The notes below the pieces were generated by a model. The model made no database searches and was not told the DNA's origin. It was given only the letters and a program-made list of their open reading frames with translations. Positions 47,311 through 53,916 of a stretch of DNA of 64,000 bases are shown in pieces. The DNA is from Conexibacter arvalis (lineage in GTDB: Bacteria > Actinomycetota > Thermoleophilia > Solirubrobacterales > Solirubrobacteraceae): the NCBI RefSeq assembly GCF_014199525.1, contig NZ_JACHNU010000007.1:62001-126000 (forward strand), read 5' to 3'. The position numbers were made by a program, and so were the translations under genes. Each line of letters opens with the position of its first letter. Positions within the stretch are counted from its first letter, which is position 1.

Positions 47311-50226
<2,916 letters not shown>

Positions 50227-50255
50227 GCGCGCCGCTCGTCTGAGCGCCGGCGCGC
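50227..50255 (+). terminator. Terminator after secA
   Basis: GCGCGCCG (50227-50234) pairs with CGGCGCGC (50248-50255), with an inner CTC/GAG stem, starting at the secA stop. Confidence 0.6.
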
Positions 50256-50311
50256 CAGCTGTGGTCGCTTCGCCGACCTCGGCCTACCCTTCGGCGTGAC
50301 CTTTCCGTCGC

Positions 50312-50338
50312 CGCCGCCTCTTCCCATGCGAGGCGGCG
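50312..50338 (+). promoter_or_regulatory. Hairpin in the leader of the secreted basic-protein gene
   Basis: CGCCGCCTC (50312-50320) pairs with GAGGCGGCG (50330-50338) around a 9-nt loop. It lies 39 nt before the ATG at 50378, downstream of a TACCCT hexamer (50285-50290). It may be a leader structure or a terminator remnant. Confidence 0.35.
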
Positions 50339-50377
50339 CCGACGGCGTCGCGCCACAGACGGAGACGAGGAGGACGG

Positions 50378-51007
50378 ATGAACGGCCGAACGACACGGAT
50401 CGCCCAGGTCGCGATGGTGGTGGTCGCGCTGCTGCTCGGCACCGCGACCGCGACGGCGCTGGCGCGCCATGGCGCCGACGACGGACCGGGCGGCACGACC
50501 GGGACGACGCAGACCGGCACGACCGGCACGACGACGACGCCCGCGCAGGCGCCCGCGAGACGGATCCGCGTCGTCGGGATCGTCACCGCACGCGACGAGG
50601 CGGCGAGAAGCTTCACGCTCGAGGCGAAGAACCGCAAGCCGGTCGCGAAGACGGCGAAGCAGCGCCGCAAGGTGGCCAAGCACGGGCGCAAGCACCGCGC
50701 GACGCGCACCTACACCGTGCTCGCCGGCGAGCTGGCGATCCCCGCCGTCGGTCGACAGGTGCTCGTGAAGGGCACGGTCGAGGGCACGACGATCACCGCG
50801 ACGCGCGTCAAGGTGCTGCGCGGCGACGACAACCCGCATCGCCGCGGACCGGTCGGCGACCGTGACGGCGACGACGGCGGCCGCGGGCCGCACGGCGGCG
50901 ATCGCGGCCGCGGACGCGGCGGCGAGGAGCGCGGCGCCGACCGTGGCCGGGGGCGCGGTGGTGACGGCGAGCGCGGCGGCCGCGGCCGTGGCGGCGACGA
51001 CGACTGA
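50378..51007 (+). CDS. Secreted DUF5666-like protein with Gly/Arg/Asp-rich tail
   Basis: A 209-aa protein. The N-terminal hydrophobic segment (residues about 9-29, AQVAMVVVALLLGTATATA) is a signal peptide or anchor. A Thr/Gly linker (TTGTTQTGTTGTTTT) leads to a small OB-like domain (RIRVVGIVTARDEAARSFTL...VLVKGTVEGTTITATRVKVL) resembling DUF5666. The last about 55 residues are a low-complexity GRG/GGD/DRD tail. That tail matches in composition the extracellular part of the sigma factor encoded 30 nt downstream. Function is unknown; a target or partner of the sigma factor is plausible (inference). Confidence 0.7.
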   Translation: MNGRTTRIAQVAMVVVALLLGTATATALARHGADDGPGGTTGTTQTGTTGTTTTPAQAPARRIRVVGIVTARDEAARSFTLEAKNRKPVAKTAKQRRKVAKHGRKHRATRTYTVLAGELAIPAVGRQVLVKGTVEGTTITATRVKVLRGDDNPHRRGPVGDRDGDDGGRGPHGGDRGRGRGGEERGADRGRGRGGDGERGGRGRGGDDD

Positions 51008-51037
51008 TCTCCACTCCGGCGGGCGGGAGTCGAGGCG

Positions 51038-52693
51038 GTGAAGCCGCGGCTCTCCGACGCGCTGCTGAGGACGCAGACCGACGAGCGGCTCGTCGCGCTG
51101 ACGCGCGCCGGTCATGAGCGGGCGTTCGCGGCGATCGTCGATCGCTACCGCAGGCCGCTCGTCGCCTTCGCGCGCCGGATCGCGCCCGACAGCCGTGCCG
51201 AGGACGTCGTCCAGCAGGCGCTGACCAGCGCCTGGGCGGCGCTCGCCGCCGGCGCGGAGGTGTCGCACCTGCGCGGCTGGCTGCATCAGATCGTCCGCCA
51301 CGAGGCGATCCGCGTCGCCAAGCAGGAGGGATTGGCCTACGCCGACCCGCTGGAGGAGGCCGCGATGCGTCGCCGCGCCGCGACGGGCTCCGCCGCGCTC
51401 GCGGGCCGGGACGCCGCGGCGGCCTCGGAGGAGCGCGAGCGGCTGCGCGCGGCGCTCTCCGGCATCGCGGAGCTGCCCGCGCATCAGCGCGACGCGCTCG
51501 TGCAGACGACGCTCGCCGGGCGCAGCCGCCGCGAGGTCGCCGCCGCGCTCGGCTTGAGCGAGGGGGCGGTCCGCCAGCTCGTCCACCGCGCCCGCACCGC
51601 GCTGCGAACGGCCGCGACGGCGCTCACGCCGCTGCCGCTCGCTTCGTGGGCTGCCGGTCTCGGCGGCGCGGCCGGCCCCGGAATCGCCGGGCTCGGCGGC
51701 GCCGCCGGTCCAGGGCTCGCCGACCTCGCCGTCGGTGCCGGCGGCGCTACGCTCGCAGGGACCGTGCTGAAGGCCGGTGCCGTCGTCGTCGCCGGCGGCG
51801 CGATCGCCGCCGGCGTGACCGCCGGCAGAGGGCGCCCCGACGATCCGGTGCCGGCGCCGGTGCGTCAGAGCGGGCTCGCCGGACCAGGGGCGAAGAGCGG
51901 CGGAGGAGGACCAGGAGCGGAGACCGGCCGCGGTGGAGCGCCCGCCGTGCCTGTCAGGGGGATCGCGCTCGGCGACCACGCGCGACGCGGCGGGCAGGAG
52001 CGCGACGGCCGTCGGCGCGACGACGCCGACCGACGCGGCCGCGGCGACGGCGACCGCCGGGACCGTCGCTCCGGAGACGGTCGCCCGCGCGGCGGAACCG
52101 GCCAGCGCGACGACGAGGGCCGCGGCGGTCGCGTCGAGGACCGTGGCGCCCATGGGCGCGGACGCGGCGGTGGGCGCGGCGGCACGGCACGCGGCGGGGA
52201 GCGCGGCAGCGAGGGACGCGGCGGGCAGGACGACGGCCGCGGCGATCCAGGGCGCGGCCGCGGCGCCGAAGGGGTCGGCAGGGCTGCTGATGGAAGCGGC
52301 GGTCGCGGGCGCGGCGGCGACGCCGCTGGCGGGCGCGGCCAGGGCCGCCGCGACGACTCCGGCGGCGGCGTCTCCAGCGCGAGCGGCCGCGCACAGGGGC
52401 GGGCCGGCGACGACGGCGCCGGCGGCTCCCCGGGCGCCGGCTCGCCGGGCGGCGCGGGCGGCAGCAGCTCGCACGGCCAGAGCGGAGACTCGTCCGGCGC
52501 GGGCGGCGGCGGCAGCTCGCACGGGCAACGCGGAGACTCGTCCGGCGCGGGCGGCAGCGGCGGCTCGCACGGCCAGAGCGGCGACTCGTCCGGCGCGGGC
52601 GGCAGTTCGGGCTCGTCGGGCCCGGTTGGCTCCTCGCGCGGCTCGGGCTCCTCCGGGCGTGGAGAAGGATCGGGGCGGCCGTCCGGCGACTGA
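51038..52693 (+). CDS. ECF sigma factor with transmembrane helix and 287-residue extracytoplasmic tail
   Basis: A 551-aa fusion. Residues about 22-95 are a sigma-70 region 2 (AFAAIVDRYRRPLVAFARRI, AEDVVQQALTSAWAAL). Residues 141-192 are region 4 (LPAHQRDALVQTTLAG, LGLSEGAVRQLVHRARTAL). A Gly/Ala-rich hydrophobic helix (about 236-264, LKAGAVVVAGGAIAAGV) follows. The rest is Gly/Arg/Asp-rich, then Gly/Ser-rich, with three 16-residue repeats. Ordinary ECF factors are about 160-200 aa and soluble. This one seems tethered to the membrane with a tail outside, so it may sense an external signal without a separate anti-sigma factor; none is encoded nearby. The start is a GTG at 51038. The long tail frame is supported by an unbroken reading frame and G/C-ending codons, but other frames are also open there. 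Confidence 0.75.
   Translation: MKPRLSDALLRTQTDERLVALTRAGHERAFAAIVDRYRRPLVAFARRIAPDSRAEDVVQQALTSAWAALAAGAEVSHLRGWLHQIVRHEAIRVAKQEGLAYADPLEEAAMRRRAATGSAALAGRDAAAASEERERLRAALSGIAELPAHQRDALVQTTLAGRSRREVAAALGLSEGAVRQLVHRARTALRTAATALTPLPLASWAAGLGGAAGPGIAGLGGAAGPGLADLAVGAGGATLAGTVLKAGAVVVAGGAIAAGVTAGRGRPDDPVPAPVRQSGLAGPGAKSGGGGPGAETGRGGAPAVPVRGIALGDHARRGGQERDGRRRDDADRRGRGDGDRRDRRSGDGRPRGGTGQRDDEGRGGRVEDRGAHGRGRGGGRGGTARGGERGSEGRGGQDDGRGDPGRGRGAEGVGRAADGSGGRGRGGDAAGGRGQGRRDDSGGGVSSASGRAQGRAGDDGAGGSPGAGSPGGAGGSSSHGQSGDSSGAGGGGSSHGQRGDSSGAGGSGGSHGQSGDSSGAGGSSGSSGPVGSSRGSGSSGRGEGSGRPSGD
52466..52609 (+). repeat. Three tandem 48-bp repeats inside the sigma-factor tail
   Basis: Units at 52466-52513, 52514-52561 and 52562-52609 each encode a variant of SSHGQSGDSSGAGGGG. 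The reading frame is kept, which supports this frame as the coding one. Confidence 0.85.
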
Positions 52694-52797
52694 GCGTGCC
52701 CGACGCGCGGACCGGTGCCTTCGGGCGGACGCGCGATGACGGCGCGGAGCCCGCCCGCGCCGCGCGGCCGGACCCCACTCGGCTAGCCTGGAGGGGT

Positions 52798-53916
52798 ATG
52801 GCTGCCACGCCCCCCGCCGCATCCTCAGAGCCGATCCCGCAGCGTCTGGCGGCGATCCGCAGACAGCTGTCGCTGCTCGACGACTACATCGACCCGAAGA
52901 GCCTCGAGGCGCGGGTCGGCGAGCTCGAGCAGGAGATGGGCGAGCCCGGTTTCTGGGACAACCAGGAGAAGGCCGCGAAGACGAGCGCCGAGCACGCGCG
53001 CGCGGCGCGCAAGCTCGAGGCGTACACGACGCTGTCGACCGACGTCGAGGATCTCGAGCCGCTCGCCGAGATGGCGCAGGAGGATCCCGACCTCGAGCAG
53101 GAGCTGGCCGAGCAGATCGCCAGCGTCGAGCAGCGGCTCGCGCAGCTGGAGGAGGAGCGCCTCTTCTCCGGCAGATACGACGCCGGCGACGCGCTCGTCA
53201 CCGTCAACGCCGGCGCCGGCGGCACCGACGCCCAGGACTGGGCGGAGATGGTGCTGCGGATGGAGATGCGCTGGGCCGAGAAGCGCGGCTTCGACGTCGA
53301 GCTGCTGGAGGCGAGCCCGGGGGAGGAGGCCGGCATCAAGTCGGCGACCTTCCTCGTCAGAGGCGAGAACGCCTACGGCCTCTACGGCGCCGAGAAGGGC
53401 GTCCACCGGCTCGTCCGCCTGAGTCCCTTCGACAGCCAGAACCGCCGCCAGACCTCGTTCGCGGGGCTCGAGGTCGCGCCGGTCGTCGAGGACGCCGCCG
53501 AGGTCGCGATCGACGACGACGACCTCCAGGTCGACACCTACCGCGCCTCCGGCGCCGGCGGCCAGCACGTCAACAAGACCGACTCGGCCGTCCGCATCAC
53601 GCACAAGCCGACCGGCATCGTCGTGCAGTGCCAGAACGAGCGCTCGCAGTCGTCCAACCGCGCGACCGCGCTGGCGATGCTCCGCTCCAAGCTCGTCGAG
53701 CTGGAGGAGAGAAGACGCCAGGAGGAGATCGCGCGCGAGAAGGGCGAGGCGCAGGACGTCAACTTCGGCTCGCAGATCCGCTCCTACGTCCTGCACCCGT
53801 ACTCGATGGTCAAGGACCACCGCACCGAGTTCGAGGTCGGCGACACCGGCCGCGTGCTCGACGGCGACCTCGACGGCTTCGTCCGCGCCTACCTGCTCCA
53901 GGCGGCGGCCAAGTAA
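52798..53916 (+). CDS. prfB: Peptide chain release factor 2
   Basis: A 372-aa class I release factor for UGA/UAA. The codon-recognition SPF tripeptide is in VRLSPFDSQNRRQTSFA and the GGQ is in [19 protein letters not shown]. The frame runs unbroken from the ATG at 52798, so there is no programmed +1 frameshift as in E. coli. A TAGCCT box (52784-52789) and GGAGGGG precede the start. Confidence 0.96.
   Translation: MAATPPAASSEPIPQRLAAIRRQLSLLDDYIDPKSLEARVGELEQEMGEPGFWDNQEKAAKTSAEHARAARKLEAYTTLSTDVEDLEPLAEMAQEDPDLEQELAEQIASVEQRLAQLEEERLFSGRYDAGDALVTVNAGAGGTDAQDWAEMVLRMEMRWAEKRGFDVELLEASPGEEAGIKSATFLVRGENAYGLYGAEKGVHRLVRLSPFDSQNRRQTSFAGLEVAPVVEDAAEVAIDDDDLQVDTYRASGAGGQHVNKTDSAVRITHKPTGIVVQCQNERSQSSNRATALAMLRSKLVELEERRRQEEIAREKGEAQDVNFGSQIRSYVLHPYSMVKDHRTEFEVGDTGRVLDGDLDGFVRAYLLQAAAK

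What the first reader, a model, noticed from the sequence alone, without database searches (positions are those of the whole stretch)
51038..52693. Membrane-tethered ECF sigma factor with a long extracytoplasmic low-complexity tail
Seen: sigma regions 2 and 4, then one hydrophobic helix, then 287 Gly/Arg/Asp/Ser-rich residues including three 16-residue repeats. No anti-sigma gene is adjacent. Family knowledge: ECF factors are normally soluble and held by a separate anti-sigma factor. Inference: this may be a one-piece signal transducer in which the outside tail senses wall or surface state and the sigma domain is released by proteolysis or acts at the membrane.
Basis: partly seen in the sequence, partly recalled or inferred. 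Interest (0 to 1): 0.7.

Follow-up and report, generated by a model that had tools for sequence, protein, structure and literature searches.

The report
Membrane-anchored sigma factor with secreted partner
A soil actinobacterium encodes a gene-switching protein (ECF sigma factor) fused to a probable membrane anchor and a long floppy outside tail; the same layout recurs across its bacterial order, often next to a gene for a secreted protein, so it is probably a lineage-specific one-piece sensor, related to known anchored sigma factors but without their built-in inhibitor domain.

Summary
Window 51038-52693 encodes ECF sigma regions 2 and 4, an Ala/Gly/Val-rich hydrophobic helix, and a 287-residue Gly/Arg/Asp/Ser-rich tail with three 16-residue repeats. 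It is not a one-off: about 75 distinct relatives, confined in these samples to one order (Solirubrobacterales and near kin), share this architecture. The helix is conserved with an invariant Lys/Arg before it; tails are always low-complexity but diverge freely. A sister branch, with two members in this genome, inserts a zinc-finger anti-sigma motif before the membrane segment, as published groups ECF48/52/53 do; the query branch lacks it.

A secreted protein gene (50378-51007 here; signal peptide, DUF5666-like small beta domain, in many species TSP3-like Asp repeats) sits directly beside the sigma gene in 33 of 74 query-branch loci and 0 of 18 zinc-finger loci. And the sigma gene occupies a conserved neighbourhood (S41 protease-FtsX-FtsE-M16-sigma-nadA-nadC-prfB-secA).

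Best model: a membrane-held sigma factor released by proteolysis, with the secreted protein as outside partner. Architecture and linkage are shown computationally; membrane insertion is likely but marginal; release, signal and targets are inferred. New variant of a known kind.

The parts
51038..52693 (+). sigma-helix-tail gene (551 aa, GTG start)
   Evidence: start position matches ATG of the closest relative L011
51137..51322 (+). sigma region 2 (residues 34-95)
   Evidence: Pfam PF04542 E 3.4e-9; AF2 pLDDT above 95
51461..51604 (+). sigma region 4 (residues 142-189)
   Evidence: Pfam PF08281 E 2.3e-10
51617..51661 (+). conserved post-sigma4 motif TALTPLPLASWAAGL (residues 194-208); no zinc finger follows
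   Evidence: P198 98%, P200 88%, W204 69% in 51 relatives
51764..51826 (+). hydrophobic helix, probable single membrane span (about residues 243-263), K245 before it
   Evidence: Kyte-Doolittle 1.78; K/R at 245 in 100% of 51 relatives; AF2 helix 239-260 at low confidence
51830..52690 (+). low-complexity Gly/Arg/Asp/Ser-rich tail (residues 265-551)
52450..52605 (+). 48-bp (16-residue) tandem repeat, 3.3 copies
   Evidence: TRF, 88% match
50378..51007 (+). candidate partner: secreted protein with signal peptide, DUF5666-like beta domain (about residues 62-144) and Gly/Arg/Asp tail; probably co-transcribed with the sigma gene (30-nt gap)
   Evidence: ortholog in L011 matches Pfam DUF5666 E 1.6e-4, below cut-off
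50296..50324 (+). non-coding footprint GTGACCTT-N15-TCTTCC, candidate promoter/control element of the pair
   Evidence: one match per genome in three congeners, always before the pair; control 0
47311..50226 (+). secA (upstream neighbour; synteny marker)
   Evidence: synteny
52798..53916 (+). prfB (downstream neighbour; synteny marker)
   Evidence: synteny

Best explanation
A membrane-tethered ECF sigma factor working as a one-piece transducer. Shown computationally: sigma2-sigma4, short linker, conserved hydrophobic helix with K/R before it, and a long disordered tail, conserved in an order-specific family with no zinc-finger anti-sigma domain and usually no adjacent anti-sigma gene, often paired with a secreted DUF5666-like protein gene. 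Inferred: the helix inserts in the membrane with the sigma domain inside and the tail outside; tethering keeps the sigma domain away from promoters or RNA polymerase; an extracytoplasmic event, in which the secreted partner takes part as ligand, shield or co-receptor, exposes the tail to a CtpB/Prc-like S41 protease, and a site-2 protease (M50) then frees the sigma domain.
For: Architecture in 22 of 61 nearby genomes at strict E-value and about 75 distinct loci in all. Helix above 1.6 in 57 of 65 query-branch proteins, never a second one; K/R at 245 invariant. Sigma fold confirmed; top PDB matches are sigmaE-RseA and AlgU-MucA. Secreted partner adjacent in 33 of 74 query-branch loci against 0 of 18 zinc-finger loci; signal-like N-terminus in 33 of 35 partner ORFs; independently adjacent in 11 of 21 genomes of the class sample that carry the sigma. 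Partner type follows sigma phylogeny. Tail and partner residue make-up correlate across 30 pairs (0.27, permutation p 0.0002; not corrected for phylogeny). S41-FtsX-FtsE-M16 directly precede the sigma gene in relatives; the only S41 protease of this genome lies 19 kb away on the same contig and M50 proteases are present. Precedent: IutY is activated by Prc (S41) and RseP (M50); truncated SCO4117 (ECF52) is still partly active (PMC8999054, PMC5826349).
Against: The helix is weakly hydrophobic and Gly-rich; insertion is not proven. The query tail is Arg-rich (net +11) and tail charge varies from -38 to +40, which argues against a specific charge-based sensor. More than half of the query-branch loci show no detected partner (some have short flanks). 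The S41 gene sits in a general prfB-ftsEX-smpB neighbourhood and may be unrelated. No targets are known in this genome. A few query-branch ORFs end soon after the sigma domain (L074, L094, L098).
Confidence: 0.5

Rival explanations
1. The sigma factor is tethered but works at the membrane or is always on; the tail is a passive stalk tolerated because GC-rich low-complexity DNA expands easily, with no sensing role.
For: Tail sequence, length and charge vary widely; 48-bp repeat expansion; the neighbouring secreted protein has a similar tail, so drift of this kind is common in this genome.
Against: A long tail of disorder-type composition is kept in nearly all intact members of an order-wide family, and a partner gene is linked.
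Confidence: 0.2
2. The hydrophobic segment is not a membrane span; the whole protein is cytoplasmic and the RGG-like, Arg/Gly-rich tail binds nucleic acid or RNA polymerase, or drives clustering.
For: Segment only moderately hydrophobic; AF2 confidence low there; query tail Arg-rich.
Against: Helix and preceding K/R conserved; tails in 47 of 71 members are net negative, unlike RGG tails; linkage to a secreted protein gene.
Confidence: 0.15
3. It is held by an anti-sigma factor encoded elsewhere, possibly in trans by the zinc-finger domain of a paralogous sigma factor; the anchor only co-localises them.
For: Two zinc-finger paralogs in this genome; in L017, L056, L060 and L071 a zinc-finger-branch sigma gene lies directly beside the query-branch gene, convergent.
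Against: Not adjacent in the window or in most loci; no direct evidence of interaction.
Confidence: 0.15

Closest known systems
ECF52 (SCO4117 of Streptomyces coelicolor), ECF48, ECF53
   Same: Actinobacterial ECF sigma domain fused to a membrane span and a long extracytoplasmic low-complexity extension; release by proteolysis proposed (PMC8999054, PMC5826349).
   Different: Those carry a zinc-finger anti-sigma (ZAS-like) domain between sigma4 and the membrane, and ECF52 ends in a carbohydrate-binding module; the query branch has neither. The two zinc-finger paralogs in this genome (L002, L003) are closer to that layout.
IutY of Pseudomonas putida (ECF243)
   Same: Sigma domain at the N-terminus of a single membrane-anchored polypeptide, activated by Prc (S41) then RseP (site-2) cleavage (PMC8999054).
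   Different: IutY carries a full anti-sigma domain and an outer-membrane-receptor-facing periplasmic domain; here only a short linker and a disordered tail, in an actinobacterium.
Canonical ECF sigma / membrane anti-sigma pairs (sigmaE-RseA, SigW-RsiW)
   Same: Sigma domain fold; extracytoplasmic-to-cytoplasmic signalling by regulated proteolysis would be the same principle.
   Different: No separate anti-sigma gene adjacent.
DUF5666 (PF18914) and TSP3_bac (PF18884) secreted proteins
   Same: Partner of the window clade resembles DUF5666; many other partners carry DxDxDG repeats, one matching TSP3_bac.
   Different: All Pfam matches are below the curated cut-off; the C-type partner has a low-complexity insert between two conserved cysteines; no PDB fold match.

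Membership tests
ECF sigma factor (sigma-70 family, regions 2 and 4 only) | Sigma70 regions 2 and 4 present, other sigma regions absent | tested here: met
   Pfam PF04542, PF08281 and NCBIfam TIGR02937 above cut-off; Foldseek to sigmaE
ECF48/ECF52/ECF53 (membrane-fused actinobacterial ECFs) | Zinc-finger (ZAS-like) domain after sigma4 | tested here: not met
   No H-x3-C-x2-C after sigma4 in the window protein or the query branch, while the sister branch has it
ECF48/ECF52/ECF53 (membrane-fused actinobacterial ECFs) | One or two membrane helices after the sigma domain | tested here: inconclusive
   One conserved hydrophobic helix, marginal strength
ECF52 | C-terminal carbohydrate-binding module | tested here: not met
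   No Pfam domain after residue 195 above cut-off
ECF48/ECF52/ECF53 | Placement in the published ECF group phylogeny/HMMs (Casas-Pastor 2021) | not tested
   Paper and HMMs not held
IutY-type sigma/anti-sigma hybrid | Anti-sigma domain fused C-terminal to sigma | tested here: not met
   Only a short, largely disordered linker between sigma4 and the helix
IutY-type sigma/anti-sigma hybrid | Release by Prc (S41) and RseP (M50) proteolysis | not testable with these tools
   S41 and M50 genes present, S41 linked; cleavage needs an experiment

The most novel reading that the evidence does not exclude
The family is a sensor in which membrane tethering alone replaces the anti-sigma domain: a disordered outside tail together with a separately encoded secreted beta-domain (in many species TSP3-like, possibly calcium-binding) protein controls when an S41 protease linked to the FtsEX cell-division cluster trims the tail and releases the sigma factor, coupling envelope or division state to transcription.
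Probability: 0.2. Interest if true: 0.75.

Novelty: new variant of a known kind. Interest (0 to 1): 0.48.

Why it matters
Membrane-fused ECF sigma factors without any recognisable anti-sigma domain would show that an anchor can be the whole off-switch. The linked secreted protein and the conserved FtsEX/S41 neighbourhood give concrete, testable partners for ECF factors that have no anti-sigma gene nearby, a point a review names as open (PMC8103513). The family is widespread in a little-studied order of soil bacteria, some of which (Solirubrobacter, Conexibacter) are cultured.

Tried and rejected
Frameshift or early end after residue 235: rejected by codon-position substitution pattern through the helix and by open in-frame tails in relatives; local codon bias alone was ambiguous. 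Anti-sigma next door: none found. Autoregulatory ECF promoter: CGAACC-N14-TGCGTA lies just upstream of the sigma gene in six relatives of two sub-clades (one with a single mismatch) and also before secreted cupredoxins, a secreted sugar-dehydrogenase-like protein and a different ECF sigma gene; it has no match in this genome or G003, and the other ECF could own it, so no regulon is claimed. The footprint GTGACCTT-N15-TCTTCC occurs once per genome, so it is not a regulon motif. Partner fold: six-stranded small beta model, mean pLDDT 81, but the other four models near 62-66 and no PDB match; OB-fold not claimed. First DUF5666-profile searches for the window partner found few distant relatives; the C-type profile was needed. 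Several paper searches found nothing on this family.

Full report
What is there. The ORF at 51038-52693 encodes 551 residues: sigma region 2 (34-95), region 4 (142-189), a Gly/Ala-rich linker, one hydrophobic helix (about 243-263) and a 287-residue tail. The tail has an Arg/Asp/Gly-rich first part and a Ser/Gly-rich second part with three 16-residue repeats, seen in the DNA as a 48-bp tandem repeat of 3.3 copies. A structure prediction from 51 relatives gives a confident sigma2 and sigma4, a disordered linker and a low-confidence helix at 239-260; the PDB matches are ECF sigma factors such as sigmaE and AlgU.

Is the tail frame real. GC by codon position is distorted in the tail because Gly, Arg and Asp fix positions 1 and 2. 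A codon-preference score is best in the annotated frame over the whole tail, though not in every sub-window. Comparison settles the helix region: between the window and two congeners, differences in linker+helix fall mostly on third positions (7/4/22 and 13/8/29). For the tail, relatives keep an open, hydrophobic-poor frame while the other two frames carry stops in 60 and 66 of 79 cases (both branches pooled). The closest relative, L011 (84% identical in the sigma part), keeps the same order of a charged stretch followed by a Ser/Gly stretch.

A family, with two branches. Searches of near relatives, of a genome collection and of class and phylum samples found the same layout in about 75 distinct loci. 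In the phylum sample it occurred in 9 of 396 genomes, all in the query's order. In the class sample the strongest hits were again all in that order. A tree of 100 sigma domains puts the zinc-finger proteins in one clade (99/95); the query-type proteins lie outside it, with deep forks unresolved. The zinc-finger branch has H-x3-C-x2-C after sigma4, then one or two hydrophobic helices and an Ala/Pro/Thr-rich tail; this genome has two of them (L002, L003). The query branch has instead a conserved TAxTPxPLxxW motif, a linker and the helix with an invariant K/R before it. In four loci (L017, L056, L060, L071) both kinds are adjacent and convergent.

Membrane insertion. The helix scores 1.78 in the window and above 1.6 in 57 of 65 query-branch proteins, against 1.06-1.32 for five soluble proteins of the window and 2.2-2.3 for the partner's signal sequence and a multi-span membrane protein. 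This is a real but marginal candidate span. Insertion, with the sigma domain inside and the tail outside, is an inference that rests on helix conservation, the K/R, and the linkage to a secreted protein.

The partner. Immediately upstream, at 50378-51007, is a secreted protein with a signal sequence, a DUF5666-like domain (sub-threshold in the L011 ortholog) and its own Gly/Arg/Asp tail. Profiles of this and of a second, cysteine-bearing type find such a gene next to the sigma gene in 33 of 74 query-branch loci with usable flanks and in 0 of 18 zinc-finger loci. All hits in those loci lie within about 0.8 kb of the sigma gene, upstream or downstream, nearly always on the same strand. The class sample gives the same picture from coordinates alone: the cysteine type is adjacent in 11 of 21 genomes that carry the sigma. 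The DUF5666-like type occurs only in the clade that includes the window. Signal-like N-termini are present in 33 of 35 partner ORFs and many carry DxDxDG repeats resembling TSP3. Residue make-up of partner and tail correlates over 30 pairs (mean 0.27, p 0.0002), but shared ancestry is not removed.

Neighbourhood. In relatives the order is S41 protease-FtsX-FtsE (one strand), M16 protease-sigma-partner (other strand), then nadA-nadC-decarboxylase-prfB-secA; in the Conexibacter-like congeners (window, G003, G001) the pair sits between secA and prfB. In this genome M16, FtsE, FtsX, the sole S41 protease and an M50 ORF lie 14-23 kb downstream on the same contig. The S41 protein has a PDZ domain and a weak match to the CtpB N-terminal domain.

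Mechanism. The best-supported reading is a tethered sigma factor released by proteolysis. Published precedents are IutY, processed by Prc (S41) and RseP, and the proposed release of ECF48/52/53 (PMC8999054); a truncated SCO4117 lacking its extension retained activity (PMC5826349). Here the built-in anti-sigma domain is missing, so tethering itself, or a partner in trans, must be the off-switch, or the protein is always on. The S41 link is suggestive only, because prfB-ftsEX-smpB is (from general knowledge) a common actinobacterial cluster.

Novelty. Membrane-fused ECF factors are known, so the kind is not new. The zinc-finger-less layout and its pairing with a secreted protein were not found in the papers searched, but the main ECF classification paper was not held, so a published group covering this family cannot be excluded.

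Noticed in passing
G000:C2:632055-632612 (L002) and G000:C1:1434593-1435129 (L003): Two paralogous sigma genes in the same genome with a zinc-finger motif, hydrophobic segment(s) and a 200-270 residue Ala/Pro/Thr-rich tail; members of a separate clade.
   Followed up: partly
L128, L138, L142, L145 and other loci: Candidate ECF promoter CGAACC-N14-TGCGTA upstream of the sigma gene in several relatives, and also before secreted cupredoxins, a secreted sugar-dehydrogenase-like protein and another ECF sigma gene; 29 matches in six genomes against 4 for the reversed control.
   Followed up: partly
L026, L028, L069, L072, L080, L087, L088, L097: Partner proteins with DxDxDG (TSP3-like, possibly calcium-binding) repeats and His-rich stretches after the signal peptide.
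   Followed up: partly
L017, L056, L060, L071: A zinc-finger-branch sigma gene lies directly downstream and convergent to the query-branch sigma gene.
   Followed up: no
L074, L094, L098: Query-branch-like sigma ORFs that end soon after the sigma domain, with no helix or tail.
   Followed up: no
window 50003-52822, minus strand: A 939-aa antisense ORF runs across the partner and sigma genes; explained by very high GC, not treated as a gene.
   Followed up: partly
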